Assembly: GCA_955652215.1 (NCBI GenBank)
Contig: CATPAX010000084.1
Coordinates: forward strand, 1 to 7,022
DNA length: 7,022 nucleotides
Reading direction: 5' to 3'
Source of the DNA: an uncultured Solirubrobacteraceae bacterium
Lineage (GTDB): Bacteria; Actinomycetota; Thermoleophilia; Solirubrobacterales; Solirubrobacteraceae
Shown: positions 1-7,022 of the stretch, piece by piece
Position numbering within the stretch: position 1 is the first letter of the stretch
Layout of the letters: each line of letters opens with the position of its first letter
Notes under the pieces: generated by a model
The model's database searches: none
Seen by the model: the letters and a program-made list of their open reading frames with translations, nothing else
Told to the model about the DNA's origin: nothing
Position numbers and translations under genes: made by a program

Positions 1-430
1 CGGAACGGCCGCGCTGCTCGACGATCGGGAGCTGCACGAGTGGCTGCGCGGAGCCCACCAGACCTCAATGTGGACGACGGCTGTGTGCACCGGCTCGCTC
101 CTCCTCGGCGCTGCCGGACTGCTGCAGGGCAAGCGCGCAACAACGTACTGGCGCAGAATCGACCGGCTGCGCGAATACGGCGCCGAGCCCGTGAAAGAGC
201 GGTTCGTATTCGACGGCCGCATCGTTACCGCCGCAGGGGTATCGGCGGGTATTGACATGGCGCTGGCCCTCGCTGCCCGGATCGCCGGCGAGGACACAGC
301 CAAGGCAATCCAGCTTGCGATCGAGTACGACCCCCAGCCACCATTTGACTGCGGGTCGCCAGACAAGGCCCCCGAGTCGATTCACAGGGCGCTCGCGGAC
401 CTCGATCGCGGTCTGGCTCCGGCGAGCTAG
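1..430 (+). CDS. DJ-1/PfpI family protein, isonitrile-hydratase-like, C-terminal part (5' end outside window)
   Basis: The reading frame is open from position 2 and ends at TAG 428-430, giving 142 visible residues with no start in the window. The ATG at 68 is internal, because family sequence (GTAALLDD...LHEWLRG) continues upstream of it. The DJ-1/PfpI nucleophile elbow is AVCTGSLLL, with the cysteine codon at 86-88. It is followed by AAGLLQGKRATTYW and then AAGVSAGIDMALALAARIAG and IQLAIEYDPQPPFD, which I recognise as signatures of the subgroup that includes Pseudomonas isonitrile hydratase InhA. Members are cytosolic enzymes or stress proteins, and the true substrate here is unknown. About 60-80 N-terminal residues should lie before the window. 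The stop overlaps the stop of the convergent acyltransferase gene. Family assignment is secure; isonitrile hydratase activity is only a guess. Confidence 0.88.
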   Translation, partial: GTAALLDDRELHEWLRGAHQTSMWTTAVCTGSLLLGAAGLLQGKRATTYWRRIDRLREYGAEPVKERFVFDGRIVTAAGVSAGIDMALALAARIAGEDTAKAIQLAIEYDPQPPFDCGSPDKAPESIHRALADLDRGLAPAS

Positions 431-1212
431 TGTCCCGAGCCGGCGCTGGTGGCGCTCTCGAGGTCGAGGCGCCGCTCCCGGGCGGCGCGGACCGCGCCGG
501 AGTGACCGAGCTCCTCGAGCTCACCATGCAGCTCCCTGATGCGCTCGAGGATGTAGTCGGCGGCCTGCTGCTGCTGCTCGCGGTTGCTGTGCTCGACCGG
601 TTCGAACCGAAACGGCGCTCCGTAGCTGACGGTGACGCGCGGAAACCGCAAGCGCTTCCAGTTACGGACGCGGTGCGATCCGAGGATCGCCACGGGAACC
701 ACCGGCGCGCCTGATTCGATCGCCAGGCGGCCGATGCCAGGGCGTGCCTCAGAGCCCACGGTTCCCGTTCGAGATCGCCCCCCTTCGCAGTACATGACGA
801 CCGGACCGCCGCGGTCGAGGATCGCGAACGCAGTCGTGAACGCATCCCCGTCCTGGTAGCCGCGACGCACCGGGAACACCCCGCCATGACCGAACACGTA
901 TGCCCCGATGCCCTTGAACAGCTGCGACTTCGCCATGAACTGAACGCGCCGGCGGATGAACGCCCCGACGAAGAAGTGGTCCATGAACGAGGCGTGGTTT
1001 GGCGCGAGGATCACAGCTCCGTTGGGAACGTTCTCGCTTCCCACTCCCCGCGCTCTGAACACAAGCAGCGAATACAGCACGACGGCCAGCCGTACGGCCT
1101 CATAGACCCACTCCGGCCCGCGCCGACGCGTGCGCTCATGGAACTGGTCGAAGTACTCCTTCGGACGCGGGTCCTTGTAGACCTGCGGCCTGATCTCGAC
1201 GTCTGGGGGCAC
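427..1212 (-). CDS. PlsC-type 1-acylglycerol-3-phosphate acyltransferase
   Basis: This 261-residue protein probably moves an acyl chain to lysophosphatidate or a related acceptor in phospholipid synthesis, at the inner face of the membrane. All four acyltransferase blocks are visible: NHASFMD with H73 and D78 (the HX4D catalytic pair), GVFPVRR at about 111-117, EGGRSRTG at 143-150, and GAPVVPVAI at 168-176. A hydrophobic stretch at about 38-52 may anchor the protein. The C-terminus after about 210 is charged and rich in Gln, Glu and Arg. The start is GTG, forced by an in-frame TGA four bases upstream, and I see no Shine-Dalgarno sequence before it. The gene is last in a minus-strand run behind the tandem YbjQ-like gene, separated by 75 bases that contain a strong hairpin. 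Acyl donor and acceptor cannot be told from sequence, so no plsC symbol is given. Confidence 0.9.
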   Translation of the reverse strand: MPPDVEIRPQVYKDPRPKEYFDQFHERTRRRGPEWVYEAVRLAVVLYSLLVFRARGVGSENVPNGAVILAPNHASFMDHFFVGAFIRRRVQFMAKSQLFKGIGAYVFGHGGVFPVRRGYQDGDAFTTAFAILDRGGPVVMYCEGGRSRTGTVGSEARPGIGRLAIESGAPVVPVAILGSHRVRNWKRLRFPRVTVSYGAPFRFEPVEHSNREQQQQAADYILERIRELHGELEELGHSGAVRAARERRLDLESATSAGSGH

Positions 1213-1228
1213 TGCTCAGGAATACCCC

Positions 1229-1257
1229 CGGCGCGCCCGGAGGTGACGGGCGCGCCG
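1229..1257. repeat. Strong GC-rich inverted repeat (11-bp stem, 7-nt loop)
   Basis: Arms 1229-1239 and 1247-1257 are perfect reverse complements (CGGCGCGCCCG / CGGGCGCGCCG) around a 7-base loop. It lies in the gap between the stop of the YbjQ-like gene and the start of the acyltransferase gene. No T-run follows on either strand, so it is not a classical intrinsic terminator. It could be a partial terminator, an mRNA processing or stability element, or a structure in the acyltransferase leader. The stem is seen directly; the role is inferred. Confidence 0.55.
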
Positions 1258-1287
1258 ATGCCATCCGATCAGTGCTCGCAGCGGCGG

Positions 1288-2199
1288 CTAACCGCTGACG
1301 TTGAGCACCAGGGCCGGCTTCTCGATCGCGTGGTCATCGCTGATCGGCACCACAGCGTTGCCGATCGCGAAGAATTCGATCACATGCGAGCCCCAGCCAT
1401 GGCTGCGCTCGACGATCCGAGCGCCGACCACACCCTCGGCCTGGAGCTCAGTGGACTCGGTCTGCATCCGCTCCATGGCCAGCTCGCGTGCCTCGTACAG
1501 GGCCTGGGTGTAGGTGACCATCTCCTGGTTACGCCCGATCTGCTTGAAAGACGCGCGGAGTCCCTGATGGGCCACGTGGTAGACGCAGTTGCCCATCACC
1601 ATTCCCACCGGCCGGTAACCGACTCGCAGCAGCGTCGAGAACTCCTGTCCGCTCAGATCCGAGGTGAATGGCCTGCCGTTCGGGGCCCGGTGAAGCTCGC
1701 CGCCGCGGTGCTTGACGGCGGTGCCGACAGCAATGAACTCAGCCAGGTCCGCTCCCCAGTCGTAGCGGCCGATATCGAGCCGTACGCCGACCACTCCATC
1801 GGCTCCGAGCTGATCGGCCTCCTCTTCCATGCGCGTCATCGCGAGGTCGCGGGCGTGATACATCGCCTGAGTCAGGACACCCATCTCCTGGTTCTGGTTC
1901 CAGTTGGCCTGCTGGAAGCCGATGTGGTAGATCGAGCTGCCGAGGACCAGACCCAGTGGGTCAAAGCCAGCCTCCTTGACGAGCAGGAACTCGTTGATCG
2001 AGAGGTCGCTGGTGAAGTGACCCTGACTGACCTCCTGCTTCATCCGCGCGATGCGCTCGCGGCCGGACTCCGGGATCCCGGCTAGTCCCGCCTGATAGGC
2101 GTCGGCGTGCGGGGCCTCCGCGGGAGCCACCCGCTCATTCGCCACTGCGACCTCGGGCGCGGGCTGCTGCTGGTCGTCATCGCGCTTCAAGAAACCCAT
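1288..2199 (-). CDS. Tandem YbjQ-like (heavy-metal-binding domain family) protein
   Basis: This 303-residue soluble protein consists of two copies of a YbjQ/DUF74-like domain, at about residues 62-164 and 178-284. Both copies start FTSDLS and contain a G-x-x-P-x-G-x-V-x-G segment leading to YH (I90-Y-H in copy 1, V206-Y-H in copy 2). Both continue with NQEM, a helix of the pattern ARxLAMxRM, then GVVG and a final beta segment EF-x-A-x-G-x-AV. The N-terminal 60 residues are Gln/Glu/Ala-rich and probably disordered. YbjQ homologues are called putative heavy-metal-binding on structural grounds, but their function is unproven. I see only one cysteine (C205), so cysteine-based metal binding is unlikely. 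A clear SD (AGGAG, minus strand, at 2206-2210) sits 6 bases before the ATG, fixing the start. It is preceded by a 133-residue gene of unknown function and followed by the acyltransferase gene. Confidence 0.85.
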   Translation of the reverse strand: MGFLKRDDDQQQPAPEVAVANERVAPAEAPHADAYQAGLAGIPESGRERIARMKQEVSQGHFTSDLSINEFLLVKEAGFDPLGLVLGSSIYHIGFQQANWNQNQEMGVLTQAMYHARDLAMTRMEEEADQLGADGVVGVRLDIGRYDWGADLAEFIAVGTAVKHRGGELHRAPNGRPFTSDLSGQEFSTLLRVGYRPVGMVMGNCVYHVAHQGLRASFKQIGRNQEMVTYTQALYEARELAMERMQTESTELQAEGVVGARIVERSHGWGSHVIEFFAIGNAVVPISDDHAIEKPALVLNVSG

Positions 2200-2273: not shown

Positions 2274-2675
2274 CTAAGTGCCCTCGATCAGCAGGCGCTC
2301 GAGCGCCTGCCGCGTCTTCTGATTGCGCTGGGCTTCCGCGGCGAGAGCTGCGCCCAATGCATCAAGCCAATCTTCGACCTCAATCGCCTCTGTCTTGAGC
2401 ACGATCCCGCCTGACACTCGCGCCCGCCTCGCCTCCAGGACGTCGCGATCGCCGCGCACCAGCTCGAGTCGCTGGTCGCCCAGATGGACCGAGAGCATGC
2501 GCACTTGCTTCGGACCCAGGAGGCCCTGCCTTCCGAACTTCACCGAGACCCTGCCCGGCAGGATGTCGGCGAGCTTGGACGCCAGACTCCCGACGAACGT
2601 AAGCGTGTCGGTGGAGTCGACCCGCAGCGATGCCGCGAGCAGGTCGAGGTCGAAGCTCGAGCCCTCCGTTTCCAC
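2274..2675 (-). CDS. Hypothetical protein, 133 aa, first gene of the minus-strand run
   Basis: I do not recognise this protein. It is 133 residues, soluble, with no signal peptide or membrane segment. Residues about 5-35 look helical and hydrophobic-acidic (FDLDLLAASLRVDS). A central part follows with alternating beta-like segments (RVSVKFGR, VRMLSVHLGDQRLELV) and then VSGGIVLKTEAIEVEDWLDALGAAL. The tail is a charged helix rich in Ala, Gln, Glu and Arg. The GTG start is the only candidate near the 5' end and has no properly spaced SD, but TAGCCT (a TANNNT -10-like motif) lies 8 bases upstream on the same strand, so the message may be leaderless. It is followed after 73 bases by the tandem YbjQ-like gene, which suggests a shared role. 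Coding bias and its position make it likely to be real. Confidence 0.72.
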   Translation of the reverse strand: METEGSSFDLDLLAASLRVDSTDTLTFVGSLASKLADILPGRVSVKFGRQGLLGPKQVRMLSVHLGDQRLELVRGDRDVLEARRARVSGGIVLKTEAIEVEDWLDALGAALAAEAQRNQKTRQALERLLIEGT

Positions 2676-2683
2676 GCCCTCAG

Positions 2684-2689
2684 AGGCTA
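2684..2689 (-). promoter_or_regulatory. Possible -10 element (TANNNT) for the 133-aa gene
   Basis: On the minus strand the hexamer reads TAGCCT and is separated from the GTG start by 8 bases. That spacing is what leaderless actinomycete transcripts usually show. No convincing -35 is seen. It lies in the short divergent gap shared with the aldo-keto reductase gene. Confidence 0.25.
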
Positions 2690-2758
2690 CTGCGGCCCGC
2701 GGGTCCCCACCCCGCCGACCCGGATGGTTTGCGGTCGCGAGGTCAGGGAACGCTCAAG

Positions 2759-3604
2759 ATGATGAGCACTCATACAGACACCCACTCAGTTCCCACCCTT
2801 GCACTGCACGACGGCCACCGGATACCGCAGCTCGGCTTCGGCGTCTTCCAGGTCCCTCCTGGAAGCACGGCCGACATCGTTCTGCGCGCGCTGCGCACCG
2901 GATACCGCTCGATCGACACGGCGGCGGCCTACGGGAACGAAGCCGGAGTCGGAGAGGCGATCTCCGCCAGCGGCATCCCTCGCGACGAGCTGTTCATCAC
3001 GACCAAGCTCGCCAACGACGACCACGGTCGCGACCGGGCGCATCGCGCACTGCACCAGAGCCTGGAGCGCCTCGGCCAGGACTACGTTGACCTGTACCTG
3101 ATCCACTGGCCGGTCCCTGCTCGTGATCTGTATGCGGGCACCTGGGAAGCGCTGATCGAGCTCAAGGAAGAGGGCCTGGTCCGGTCGATCGGCGTCTCGA
3201 ACTTCCTGCCCGAGCACATCGAGCGGATAGCCGACGCGACGCACGTCACGCCCGTCATCAACCAGATCGAGCTTCACCCCCGCTTTCAGCAGCCGGAACT
3301 GCGGCGCTGGCATGAGCAGCACGGCATCCTGACCGAAGCCTGGAGCCCGCTCGGGCAGGGCAGCATCCTCGACGACCGCGTGATCGAGCGGGTCGCCTTG
3401 GAGCATCAACGGACACCCGCCCAGGTCATCCTCCGCTGGCATCTGCAGCTCGGCAACGTGGTGATCCCGAAGTCCGTCACCCCGAAGCGGATCGAGGAGA
3501 ACTTCCACCTGTTCGATTTCGAGCTCTCCGAAGAAGACGTGGAAGCGATCAGCCAGCTCGAGACCGGCGGGCGCATCGGCGGAGACCCGGCCACCTTTTC
3601 CTAA
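2759..3604 (+). CDS. Aldo-keto reductase (AKR5-like, DkgA/YvgN type)
   Basis: A cytosolic NADPH-dependent carbonyl reductase of 281 residues, the usual length for AKR5-type enzymes. The TIM-barrel family signatures are complete. The catalytic tetrad is D53 and Y58 (SIDTAAAYGN), K83 (ITTKLAN) and H116 (LYLIHWPVP). The strand SIGVSNF is at 143-149, NQIELHP at 168-174, and the NADPH-binding block IPKSVTPKRIEEN at 236-248 has K238, S239 and R244. The start is taken at ATG 2759 (a second ATG follows at 2762), because AGGGA at 2745-2749 gives an SD about 9 bases upstream. The frame is open further upstream, but that stretch does not resemble the family. Substrates of such enzymes are broad: aldehydes, methylglyoxal, 2,5-diketogluconate. 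The physiological substrate here is unknown. It is transcribed divergently from the 133-residue gene. Confidence 0.92.
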   Translation: MMSTHTDTHSVPTLALHDGHRIPQLGFGVFQVPPGSTADIVLRALRTGYRSIDTAAAYGNEAGVGEAISASGIPRDELFITTKLANDDHGRDRAHRALHQSLERLGQDYVDLYLIHWPVPARDLYAGTWEALIELKEEGLVRSIGVSNFLPEHIERIADATHVTPVINQIELHPRFQQPELRRWHEQHGILTEAWSPLGQGSILDDRVIERVALEHQRTPAQVILRWHLQLGNVVIPKSVTPKRIEENFHLFDFELSEEDVEAISQLETGGRIGGDPATFS

Positions 3605-3928: not shown

Positions 3929-4738
3929 ATGACAGAGCCAGGCGAGGGCGCCACGGGAGGCGGTCAGCTGATCGTCGAGGAGCCCGCGCCCGGCGTGGCC
4001 AGACTAACGATCTTCAATCCCGGCAAGCGGGGTGCGCTCGATCACGCGATCCTCGACGCGTTCGCTCGCCTGATGCCCGAGCTCGACGCTCGGTGCGTGC
4101 TCGTAACGGGAGTCGCCGACACCTTCTCGGCGGGATACGACATTGGCAACCTCTCCGACGGGGTGCTCGAGAGCGAGGCCGAGAAGCTAGTCGCGCACCC
4201 GTTCACGGAAGCAATCGAGGCGATCGCCGCGTATCCGTTCCCCACGATCGCGTCGCTCAACGGCCACGCGATCGGCGGCGGACTCGAGCTGGCGCTTGCC
4301 TGCGATCTGCGGATCGCAGCGGCGAGAGTTCTGGTGGCGATGCCGCCAGGGAAGCTCGGACTCGTCTACTCACATACCGGGATCGGCAAGTTCATCGAGG
4401 TGATCGGAGCGGCCCGCACCCGCGAGCTGTTCCTGGCCGGAAGCCGGATCGACGCCGCCACGGCAATGTCGTGGGGCCTGGTCAACCGCCTCGCGGAGGC
4501 AGAACATCTGACCCAGCGCGCGCTCGATTGGGCCAAGGCGATCGCCGCCGACGCTCCCCTCGCCCAGCGAGGCAATAAGCGCATGATCGACGCGGTTCTC
4601 GCCGCCCGCGGCCAGCTCGACCAGGGCACCGAGCGCGCGCTGATCGAACTGCGCGAGGCCTGCTTTCGCTCCGAGGACTTCCGTGAGGGAGTCCGCGCTT
4701 TCGCCGAGAAGCGCGCCCCGCGGTGGCAAGGGCGATAG
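3929..4738 (+). CDS. Crotonase-family protein resembling methylmalonyl-CoA decarboxylase
   Basis: A 269-residue crotonase-fold acyl-CoA enzyme. The oxyanion-hole elements are SAGYDI (residues 67-72) and NGHAIGGGLELALACD (111-126, with E120 in the place of rat enoyl-CoA hydratase Glu144). The second hydratase glutamate (Glu164) is absent: the aligned stretch reads AMPPGKLGLVY, putting P140 there. That stretch instead matches E. coli methylmalonyl-CoA decarboxylase, whose MTPVNLGVPY ends in Tyr140, aligned with Y147 here. The C-terminus (SEDFREGVRAFAEKRAPRW) is also close to the E. coli protein. By inference it acts on a carboxylated or branched acyl-CoA rather than simply hydrating enoyl-CoA. 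It starts at ATG with no clear SD and lies 39 bases after the biotin carrier gene and 96 bases before bioB. It will usually be annotated only as enoyl-CoA hydratase/isomerase. Confidence 0.85.
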   Translation: MTEPGEGATGGGQLIVEEPAPGVARLTIFNPGKRGALDHAILDAFARLMPELDARCVLVTGVADTFSAGYDIGNLSDGVLESEAEKLVAHPFTEAIEAIAAYPFPTIASLNGHAIGGGLELALACDLRIAAARVLVAMPPGKLGLVYSHTGIGKFIEVIGAARTRELFLAGSRIDAATAMSWGLVNRLAEAEHLTQRALDWAKAIAADAPLAQRGNKRMIDAVLAARGQLDQGTERALIELREACFRSEDFREGVRAFAEKRAPRWQGR

Positions 4739-4834: not shown

Positions 4835-5995
4835 GTGCCGCCGCTGATCAGCCGAGAGCAGGCCCTTCGGCTCGGAGAACTCGAGGACCGCGCCGAGATC
4901 GAGGCGCTGGTCGAGCGGGCATGGGAGGCTCGCCAAGAGCAGTTCGCCGACGCAACGGACATGTGCTCCCTGGTCAACGCGAAATCGGGCGGCTGTGCGG
5001 AGGACTGTGGCTTCTGTGCCCAGTCGAAATACGCCGAGGCGGACACCCCGATGCACGCGATGATGGAGCCCGAGCAGATGCTCGAGCATGCTCGTGCGGC
5101 GGAGGCGGCCGGAGCTCACAGGTTCTGCATGGTCACCCAGGGCCAGGGTCTCTCGCGCCGCGACTTCGAGAAGATCCTGACTGGGGCGCGCCTCGTCGCT
5201 GAGAACACGTCGCTCAAGCGCTGCGTCTCGATTGGCCACGTGAATGCCGACCGCGCCAAGGCGCTCAAGGACGCCGGGGTGCAGCGGGTTCATCACAACG
5301 TCGAGACCGCCGAGTCCTACTACCCCGAGGTCTCGACGACCGTCCGCTACGGGGCCCGCCTGCGAGCGATCGATGCAGCGCGGGACGCAGGGCTCGAGAC
5401 CTGCGTAGGAGGGATCCTGAATCTCGGGGAGAGTCGCGAGCAGCGGGTTGAGATGGCGTTCGAGCTGGCTGAGATCAATCCGACCAGCGTGCCGATCAAC
5501 CTCCTGAACCCGCGTCCCGGAACGAAGTTCGGCGACCGCGAGACGATGGACCCGTGGGAGGCGATCAAGTGGATCGCGATCTTCCGCCTGATCCTCCCCG
5601 AGGCACTGTTCCGGTTGTGCGGCGGGCGGGTTGAGAATTTGGGTGAGTTCCAGCAGACCGCGGTCAAGGCTGGGCTCAACGGGGTGATGATGGGGAACTT
5701 CCTGACCACACTCGGGAACACGCCCGACGAGGACCGATCGATGTTCGAGGGGCTGGGGCTGAACGTCGCCCGCCAGCCCGACAACGGCTCGAACCCACGC
5801 CCGGACAACCGCTCGGGATGGCTGCAGGGCGAGACGCCCGATGCAGTCAACGAGACGCTGCGACGGGCGGAGCCCGCCGCTGAGCTGACAGTGAGGTTGT
5901 GGGATCCCTCAGTGCAGCTGCGAAAGCGCCGCAAGCGTTTTGTTCCACCGCGCCCGGATGGTGCGCCAGACACAAGGAGGGGCAGCGTCGGATGA
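4835..5995 (+). CDS. bioB: Biotin synthase (radical SAM), with C-terminal extension
   Basis: Inserts sulfur into dethiobiotin to make biotin. The radical-SAM cluster motif CAEDCGFC gives C54, C58 and C61. The auxiliary [2Fe-2S] ligands known from E. coli BioB (Cys97, Cys128, Cys188, Arg260) align with C98 (RFCMV), C130 (KRCVS), C190 (ETCVGG) and R260 (LFRLCGGR). YNHN is replaced by VHHNVET (152-158), and LNPRPGT at 224-230 is typical. The core ends near residue 310. About 75 further residues follow, containing RPDNRSGW and LWDPSVQLRKRRKR, a basic tail beyond the common 320-350 length that I associate with actinomycete BioB proteins. The start is GTG without SD, and the transcript may be leaderless. 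The stop overlaps the bioF start (ATGA), so the two are translationally coupled. Confidence 0.96.
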   Translation: MPPLISREQALRLGELEDRAEIEALVERAWEARQEQFADATDMCSLVNAKSGGCAEDCGFCAQSKYAEADTPMHAMMEPEQMLEHARAAEAAGAHRFCMVTQGQGLSRRDFEKILTGARLVAENTSLKRCVSIGHVNADRAKALKDAGVQRVHHNVETAESYYPEVSTTVRYGARLRAIDAARDAGLETCVGGILNLGESREQRVEMAFELAEINPTSVPINLLNPRPGTKFGDRETMDPWEAIKWIAIFRLILPEALFRLCGGRVENLGEFQQTAVKAGLNGVMMGNFLTTLGNTPDEDRSMFEGLGLNVARQPDNGSNPRPDNRSGWLQGETPDAVNETLRRAEPAAELTVRLWDPSVQLRKRRKRFVPPRPDGAPDTRRGSVG

Positions 5996-7022
5996 TCGAG
6001 ATCGACACGCGGCTGCAGGAGCTCAAGGCGACGGGACTGGACCATCGCATCCGCCGGATCAGCGGTCCTCAGGGTCCACACGTGCTGCTCGACGGCAAGC
6101 CTGTGCTGTTGCTCTGCTCGAACAACTATCTCGGGCTCGCAGACCATCCTCGGGTTCGTGCGGCGGCGGCGGACGCAGCGATGCGCTGGGGCGTCGGGAC
6201 CGGCGCTTCGCGACCTGTCTCGGGCACGATGACGATCCATCGGCGGCTCGAGGAGCACCTCGCCGAGTTCGAGAACCGCGATAGCGCGCTCCTGTTCGGG
6301 TCGGGCTTCCTGGCCAAGACGGGCGTGATCGCCGCATTGGCCCGCGCCGGCGATGTCGTCTTCTGCGACGAACTGAGCCACGCTTCGATCATCGACGGCT
6401 GCGCCCTGTCGCGGGCAGAGGTGTTCGTCTACGACCACCTCGACTCCGAGCACCTAGCGTGGGGGCTCGAGCAGTCGGAGGGTCGGGGAGCGCTCATCGC
6501 CACCGACAGCGTGTTCTCGGTCGACGGCGACATCGCGCCACTGACCGAGATCGTCGAGCTGGCCGAGCGCCACCGGGTGCGCGTTCTGGTCGACGAGAGC
6601 CATGGCATCGGGACGCTTGGCCCGGGCGGCCGAGGCGCGCTCGCGGAGCTCGGGCTCGACGGGGAGATCGACGTGATCGTCGGGACGCTCGGAAACGCGC
6701 TCGGTTCTTACGGCGCATTCGTAGCGTGCGACCGAGCTATGTCGAACTACCTGCTGAACGCCGCCCGGACGTTGCTCTACTCGACGGCACCGTCACCGCC
6801 GGCGGTCGCCGGCGCGCACGCGGCCCTGGAGCTGATCGAGGAGCGCCCGCAGCTGGTCCAGCGACTTGACGGCGCGGCCACGGCGCTGCGCTCCGAGCTC
6901 GAGCGGGAGGGATTCGATACCGGCAGCACGCGTACCCAGATCGTCTCGCTGCCGGTCGGCGATCCACGCCTGGCGCTCCGGATCTGCGAGTCGGCGCTGA
7001 TTCGCGGCGTCTTCGCCCAGGC
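5992..7022 (+). CDS. bioF: 8-amino-7-oxononanoate synthase-like protein lacking the PLP lysine (3' end outside window)
   Basis: An alpha-oxoamine synthase family member; BioF condenses pimeloyl-thioester with alanine. 343 residues are visible with no stop before the window edge. ATG 5992 overlaps the bioB stop by ATGA, and AAGGAGG (5974-5980) lies 11 bases upstream. Family landmarks: LLLCSNNYLGLADHP (39-53), SRPVSGTMTIH (73-83), DELSHAS (126-132, H130 stacks on PLP), TDSVFSVDGDIAPL (171-184) and VDESHG (200-205, D201 and H204). The expected PLP-binding lysine in GTLGKALGS is an asparagine: GTLGNALGSYG, N235, codon AAC at 6694-6696. The usual asparagine of the SGFxAN motif is lysine K109 (AAG at 6316-6318). 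The frame is otherwise undisturbed and coding bias is normal. Family membership is certain; normal catalytic activity is doubtful. It could be a KBL-like paralogue, but the link to bioB favours BioF. Confidence 0.88.
   Translation, partial: MIEIDTRLQELKATGLDHRIRRISGPQGPHVLLDGKPVLLLCSNNYLGLADHPRVRAAAADAAMRWGVGTGASRPVSGTMTIHRRLEEHLAEFENRDSALLFGSGFLAKTGVIAALARAGDVVFCDELSHASIIDGCALSRAEVFVYDHLDSEHLAWGLEQSEGRGALIATDSVFSVDGDIAPLTEIVELAERHRVRVLVDESHGIGTLGPGGRGALAELGLDGEIDVIVGTLGNALGSYGAFVACDRAMSNYLLNAARTLLYSTAPSPPAVAGAHAALELIEERPQLVQRLDGAATALRSELEREGFDTGSTRTQIVSLPVGDPRLALRICESALIRGVFAQ

What the first reader, a model, noticed from the sequence alone, without database searches (positions are those of the whole stretch)
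6694..6696. BioF-like protein has asparagine in place of the catalytic PLP lysine
Seen: the motif reads GTLGNALGSYG with AAC at the lysine codon (residue 235; E. coli BioF Lys236), in an otherwise intact frame with D201, H204 and H130 kept. Known: this lysine forms the internal aldimine in all active alpha-oxoamine synthases, but the Lcb1 subunit of serine palmitoyltransferase lacks it and works as a partner of an active subunit. Inferred: the protein may be an inactive partner or regulator, may use another lysine, or the base may be an assembly or sequencing error (AAG to AAC is one change).
Basis: partly seen in the sequence, partly recalled or inferred. Interest (0 to 1): 0.8.

Follow-up and report, generated by a model that had tools for sequence, protein, structure and literature searches.

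The report
BioF relative lacking its PLP lysine
In soil bacteria related to Solirubrobacter, a biotin-making enzyme has repeatedly lost residues it needs for catalysis while its gene stays intact, in some genomes with no recognisable biotin synthase gene, which suggests that the protein has a second, unknown job.

Summary
In detail: codon 6694-6696 is AAC, Asn at the position of E. coli BioF Lys236, in an open frame with H130, D201 and H204 kept. It is not a lone base error: a 97% identical protein also has Asn, and 36 of 203 fetched relatives lack this lysine. On a tree rooted with BioF2, lysine changed 6 times. In 111 Solirubrobacterales genomes scored, BioF1 with an intact active site sits beside bioB in 84 of 89; BioF1 with a changed active site has no bioB beside it in 20 of 22. 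Of those 20 genomes, 9 have a lysine-bearing BioF2, 10 have no bioB found, one has only a different bioB. These copies are full length; two genomes sharing Gly at the site give dN/dS 0.13. I read BioF1 as released from catalysis but kept for another role (a pseudoenzyme). The window, with bioB still attached, looks like an early stage; its biotin is probably made through an unlinked BioF2, as in related genome G001. The second role, and a BioF2 in the window's genome, are not shown; 15 of the 20 keep lysine, so a changed substrate is a real rival.

The parts
5992..7022 (+). bioF1: BioF-like protein, 3' end cut by the window (343 residues seen)
   Evidence: TIGR00858 358.6 bits for the fragment, 407.3 for the full-length relative P0001 (cut-off 426.45)
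6694..6696 (+). AAC (Asn235) at the position of the PLP lysine (E. coli BioF Lys236)
4835..5995 (+). bioB (biotin synthase), intact, overlapping the bioF1 start by 4 bases
   Evidence: (TIGR00433 343.2 bits, cut-off 225)
3929..4738 (+). enoyl-CoA hydratase/isomerase family gene (ECH), usual neighbour of bioF1 with or without bioB
   Evidence: PF00378; synteny
2630..3604 (+). aldo/keto reductase (open frame as listed; true start uncertain), part of the neighbourhood seen in several relatives
427..2199 (-). acyltransferase (427-1212) and YbjQ-domain protein (1288-2199), part of the neighbourhood seen in several relatives

Best explanation
The protein is an inherited BioF1 that should not act as an ordinary 8-amino-7-oxononanoate synthase, because it cannot form the internal aldimine. 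BioF1 is kept in this order for a second role that does not need the reaction. Where a genome no longer depends on BioF1 for biotin (it has a second cluster with BioF2, or no biotin synthase), the active site drifts or is remodelled while the rest of the protein is kept. Shown: the substitution, its recurrence, the link with loss of adjacent bioB, purifying selection after loss of lysine in one pair of genomes. Inferred: the second role (most likely structural or regulatory, as an inactive subunit or binding protein), and that in the window's own genome the BioF step is done by an unlinked lysine-bearing BioF2, as in the related genome G001.
For: 36 of 203 homologues lack K; 6 changes, or 7 losses if K is never regained, on a tree of 140 proteins rooted with BioF2. 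111 genomes scored: intact pocket, bioB adjacent 84, not 5; changed pocket, adjacent 2 (both T352S only), not adjacent 20; Fisher 2e-15, not corrected for kinship. The 5 intact exceptions still have bioB: G198-G201 elsewhere, G058 3.5 kb upstream. No bioB over cut-off in G003, G027, G029, G033, G034, G065, G068, G069, G072, G078. BioF2 in G001, G026, G133-G139, lysine and the other eight pocket residues present in 9 of 9. G001: M at the site, bioB1 lost, bioA-bioF2 and a second bioB on other contigs. dN/dS G065-G072, both Gly at the site: 0.130 (95% 0.08-0.19); window-G001 0.174 (0.13-0.24). Pocket columns changed 51/121, other near-invariant columns 138/1254, in 11 unlinked copies without BioF2; 22/77 and 120/798 in 7 with BioF2. 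The 25 unlinked copies scored are complete frames.
Against: About 66 of 232 genomes of the order have no BioF1-strength hit (counted by eye), so the supposed role is dispensable, and G023 has a BioF broken into five pieces between bioB and bioD. 15 of the 20 changed, unlinked copies keep lysine, so many could be enzymes with another substrate. The window lineage has lost only the lysine: in P0001 the other eight scored pocket residues are kept, and bioB is still attached, so the window does not fit the rule by itself. dN/dS after the loss cannot be measured there (no DNA for P0001). Several unlinked pairs are less constrained: G078-G068 0.449, G027-G029 0.367, G003-G034 0.294, G071-G069 0.250. 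On the earlier midpoint-rooted tree of 204 proteins 4 changes suffice, and K in P0002 could be a regain. Most genomes are drafts or metagenome bins whose completeness was not shown.
Confidence: 0.55

Rival explanations
1. Relic under slow decay: BioF1 has no function once biotin synthesis is moved or lost, and we see the early part of its loss.
For: About 66 of 232 genomes lack a BioF1-strength hit (by eye); G023 has a broken copy; active-site residues change in different ways in different lineages; G078-G068 dN/dS 0.449, G027-G029 0.367.
Against: dN/dS 0.130 in G065-G072, which share Gly at the site and lack bioB and bioA, lower than 8 of the 10 usable bioB-linked pairs; the 25 unlinked copies scored are full-length frames (copies with weak or partial hits were mostly not fetched); four pairs within G135-G139 give 0.10-0.20.
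Confidence: 0.2
2. Remodelled enzyme: BioF1 has taken another substrate or reaction, and in some lineages PLP is held without the lysine (Asn, Thr, His or Met in its place), or it catalyses slowly from the external aldimine.
For: 15 of 20 changed unlinked copies keep K, while N47, R349 and T352, which I recall as lining the substrate pocket, change repeatedly (N47 to D, G or S; T352 mostly to A); in the 37 lysine-less sequences, D204 and H133 are kept in all and H207 in 36.
Against: Different lysine-less lineages carry different residues (N, T, M, A, S, H, G, deletion), as expected of release rather than of a new catalytic residue; G071 also lost H133 and H207.
Confidence: 0.17
3. Inactive half of a mixed dimer, as Lcb1/SPT1 is for Lcb2/SPT2: BioF1 pairs with BioF2 or with the serine-palmitoyltransferase-like paralogue of these genomes.
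For: In SPT the active site is held to lie between the subunits and SPT1 lacks the lysine (PMC6148460, passages); a lysine-bearing SPT-like paralogue was seen in G001, G002 and G003 and, judged by E-value alone, in many others; activation by a dead paralogue is known elsewhere (PMC3663545, abstract).
Against: By E-value the SPT-like paralogue also occurs in many genomes without BioF1; SPT1 also lacks the H, D and R residues, which the window lineage keeps; no gene pair of two bioF side by side was noticed.
Confidence: 0.07
4. Sequencing or assembly error at 6696.
For: One base separates AAC from a lysine codon.
Against: P0001 (97%) shares Asn; 36 of 203 homologues lack K.
Confidence: 0.01

Closest known systems
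8-amino-7-oxononanoate synthase BioF (E. coli BioF, TIGR00858)
   Same: Fold, length of the core, H133, D204, H207, position in a bioB-bioF operon
   Different: No PLP lysine; P0001 has a C-terminal tail of about 70 residues (E. coli BioF is 384 residues, P0001 453). P0001 scores 407.3 against the cut-off 426.45, but lysine-bearing P0002 also falls short, at 410.3
Lcb1/SPT1 subunit of eukaryotic serine palmitoyltransferase
   Same: Oxoamine synthase fold without the PLP lysine
   Different: SPT1 also lacks the H, D and R residues (PMC6148460, passages seen); the window lineage keeps them; no partner known; here the lysine was lost several times within one bacterial order
Catalytically dead deoxyhypusine synthase paralogue of trypanosomatids (PMC3663545, abstract seen)
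   Same: A dead copy kept beside a related enzyme
   Different: Other enzyme and organism; activation by the dead copy was measured there, nothing is measured here
SPT K265A crystal (PDB 4bmk, title only)
   Same: An oxoamine synthase without its lysine still folds and holds PLP, there as an aldimine with myriocin
   Different: Laboratory mutant

Membership tests
BioF (8-amino-7-oxononanoate synthase) | Oxoamine-synthase fold and sequence | tested here: met
BioF (8-amino-7-oxononanoate synthase) | PLP lysine (E. coli K236) | tested here: not met
   Asn at 6694-6696
BioF (8-amino-7-oxononanoate synthase) | Curated cut-off of TIGR00858 (426.45 bits) | tested here: inconclusive
   P0001 407.3; lysine-bearing P0002 410.3 also fails; G001 BioF2 451.8 passes
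BioF (8-amino-7-oxononanoate synthase) | Activity on pimeloyl thioester and alanine | not testable with these tools
BioF (8-amino-7-oxononanoate synthase) | Genes of biotin synthesis alongside | tested here: met
   bioB directly upstream in the window; for the five scored lysine-less copies of other genomes bioB is not adjacent, though G001 keeps bioD
Lcb1/SPT1-type inactive subunit | No PLP lysine | tested here: met
Lcb1/SPT1-type inactive subunit | Other catalytic residues (H, H, D, R) also missing | tested here: not met
   H130, D201, H204 kept; R361 kept in P0001
Lcb1/SPT1-type inactive subunit | Stable complex with an active paralogue | not testable with these tools
   Only that a BioF2 or an SPT-like paralogue exists in related genomes
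Pseudoenzyme (dead but selected) | Purifying selection after loss of the catalytic residue | tested here: met
   G065-G072 dN/dS 0.130, one pair only; for the window lineage itself not testable

The most novel reading that the evidence does not exclude
BioF has a second, non-catalytic function in Solirubrobacterales, hidden as long as BioF also makes biotin and laid bare several times over when a second BioF or an outside supply of biotin took over: a recurrent bacterial pseudoenzyme, perhaps a subunit or regulator that acts through its fold and its conserved C-terminal tail.
Probability: 0.4. Interest if true: 0.75.

Novelty: new variant of a known kind. Interest (0 to 1): 0.6.

Why it matters
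If true, BioF, taken as a one-job biotin enzyme, does something else in an order of soil bacteria, and the natural lysine-less copies separate that job from catalysis. Annotation by name would mislead: at least ten genomes here carry a full-length bioF homologue but no biotin synthase found, in drafts of unknown completeness.

Tried and rejected
Base error and alternative lysine: rejected. ECH as obligate partner: it occurs in many genomes without BioF1, so not supported. NCBIfam cut-off as a sign of lost function: rejected, lysine-bearing P0002 also fails it. A second bio cluster as the sole cause of pocket loss: no, G035 has both clusters and an intact BioF1. Biotin importer BioY as a clean marker: found in 4 of 8 changed-copy genomes and in 2 of 8 bioB-linked ones. 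Viral contigs: no relative confirmed. Plasmids: 619 records hold a relative, all under 60% identity. Papers: none noticed on a lysine-less BioF or on a BioF kept without biotin genes in the searches (listings and starts of abstracts only, open-licence papers only; the term also matched 'biofilm').

Full report
What is in the window. The frame from ATG 5992 encodes a BioF-like protein that runs off the window's end (343 residues). It overlaps the stop of an intact bioB (4835-5995) by 4 bases; upstream lie an enoyl-CoA hydratase family gene, an aldo/keto reductase and, on the other strand, a YbjQ-domain protein and an acyltransferase. Codon 6694-6696 is AAC. Aligned to E. coli K-12 BioF, residue 235 is Lys236, and His133, Asp204 and His207 are kept as 130, 201 and 204.

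Real, inherited and repeated. The nearest protein, P0001 (97%, 453 residues), has Asn too; P0002 (86%) has Lys. Three protein searches, each listing its best 120, gave 203 proteins; 36 of them lack lysine here (19 N, 8 T, 3 M, 3 H, 1 A, 1 S, 1 with four residues deleted at the site); H130 and D201 are kept in 36 of 36, H204 in 35. The nearest named relatives are Solirubrobacteraceae, Solirubrobacterales and Conexibacter (67-79% identity). With the motif and some pocket columns taken out, a tree of 140 proteins rooted with BioF2 needs 6 changes, or 7 losses if lysine never returns. An earlier midpoint-rooted tree of 204 proteins needs 4. The window and P0001 are sister to lysine-bearing P0002; next to them is a group with T, M or A that includes genome G001.

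The link with biotin genes. The window's own genome is not held. The order of G001 has 232 genomes held. I fetched BioF1 from 113 of about 165 with a strong BioF hit and scored nine pocket positions (E. coli N47, G108, H133, D204, H207, K236, R349, T352, R361; the choice is partly recalled; by recall, H133, D204, H207 and R361 correspond to the residues named for SPT in PMC6148460, passages). Two genomes had too short a flank. Of 89 with an intact pocket, 84 have bioB within 2.5 kb upstream (or within the shorter flank held, at least 1.3 kb where none was found); of 22 with a changed pocket, 2 do, and those carry only T352S (Fisher 2e-15, which ignores kinship; counting only scored genomes the 20 fall in 6 clades of the tree). 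The five intact copies without adjacent bioB belong to genomes that have bioB elsewhere (G198-G201; G058, 3.5 kb upstream). The changed, unlinked copies belong to two kinds of genome. Ten have no bioB over cut-off: G003, G027, G029, G033, G034, G065, G068, G069, G072, G078. Nine have BioF2: G001, G026, G133-G139, with lysine and the other eight pocket residues in 9 of 9, and a second bioB in the seven tested. G071 has only a distinct bioB and no bioA over cut-off. The importer BioY was found in 4 of 8 changed-copy genomes tested and in 2 of 8 bioB-linked ones. Only 5 of the 20 have lost the lysine itself (G001 M, G065 and G072 G, G068 T, G078 S); the commoner changes are at N47 and T352. G035 has both clusters and an intact BioF1, so a second cluster does not force the loss.

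Kept by selection. The 25 unlinked copies scored are complete frames. G065 and G072 share Gly at the site, lack bioB and bioA over cut-off and have no bioD hit beside BioF1; they give dN/dS 0.130 (bootstrap 0.08-0.19) over the first 380 codons and 0.166 over 428; their ECH gives 0.198. Window against G001 gives 0.174 (0.13-0.24), part of which may predate the loss. Of 11 bioB-linked pairs one was saturated; the other ten range from 0.023 to 0.425, eight of them above 0.130. Nine unlinked pairs with lysine range from 0.098 to 0.367, and G078-G068 gives 0.449, so some lineages are looser. Among 125 columns nearly invariant in the 86 bioB-linked proteins, pocket columns changed in 51 of 121 cells and the others in 138 of 1254 in the 11 unlinked copies without BioF2; 22 of 77 and 120 of 798 in 7 of the 9 with BioF2; 21 of 55 and 73 of 570 in the 5 lysine-less genomes. 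The pocket is given up faster than the rest. AlphaFold gives a middling model (mean pLDDT 73; under 50 at 42-44, 70-76, 236-238 and in the tail, among others) whose best PDB matches are oxoamine synthases.

How it works, most likely. Shown: no lysine, hence no internal aldimine by the known mechanism (PMC9304779 and PMC11906848, passages). Inferred: BioF1 has a second role that needs its fold but not the reaction; when biotin is made through BioF2 or comes from outside, the active site is free to change. The window is an early stage: lysine gone, other pocket residues still there (P0001), bioB still attached. G001 is one step on: bioB1 lost, bioD1 kept, Met at the site, with bioA-bioF2 (lysine present) and another bioB elsewhere; it is a metagenome bin, so foreign contigs cannot be excluded. 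I put 0.97 on the substitution being real and inherited, about 0.9 on the protein not being an ordinary BioF by itself, 0.55 on the whole account, and lower on any named role.

What it is not shown to be. A mixed dimer as in SPT1/SPT2 is possible, but nothing shows a partner; an SPT-like, lysine-bearing paralogue is seen in G001, G002 and G003 and, by E-value, in many more, including genomes where BioF1 is missing. A substrate change is a serious rival, since 15 of 20 changed copies keep the lysine. Decay is the third: about 66 of 232 genomes have no BioF1-strength hit (by eye), and G023 has a BioF in five pieces between bioB and bioD.

Noticed in passing
P0001 residues 436-453; C-termini of BioF1 loci: BioF1 often ends in a variable linker and a short conserved motif, about FD-x-E-A...A-A at the very end: in 50 aligned proteins A452 and A453 are invariant, D440 and E442 nearly so. 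A loose form is present in 11 of 11 unlinked copies without BioF2, 3 of 7 with BioF2, 18 of 25 unlinked in all and 48 of 86 bioB-linked.
   Followed up: partly
P0124; P0123: P0124 has four residues deleted at the lysine site and P0123 has Arg for His204, in proteins of normal length.
   Followed up: no
P0126, P0132, P0157: His in place of the lysine with changes around it (GTLGHSLGSHG in P0126); PLP dehydratases with His at this place are recalled from other families.
   Followed up: no
L112:374-1498 (-) and its relatives: A lysine-bearing oxoamine synthase paralogue, best matching NCBIfam serine palmitoyltransferase models but below their cut-offs; by E-value it is common in the order.
   Followed up: partly
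L100, L101, L102, L103 (loci of G035, G026, G137, G131): A second biotin cluster bioA-(bioD)-bioB2-bioF2, its bioB2 only 34-36% identical to the window's bioB.
   Followed up: partly
L109:6820-7488, L110:5107-5739, L225:3037-3663, L226:6749-7387, L227:3195-3860: A gene of 208-222 residues (NUDIX-like by eye only) follows bioF1 where bioB and bioD are missing.
   Followed up: no
L316:1790-4834 (G023): A BioF broken into five matching pieces lies between a bioB and a bioD match; real pseudogene or sequencing faults, not examined.
   Followed up: no
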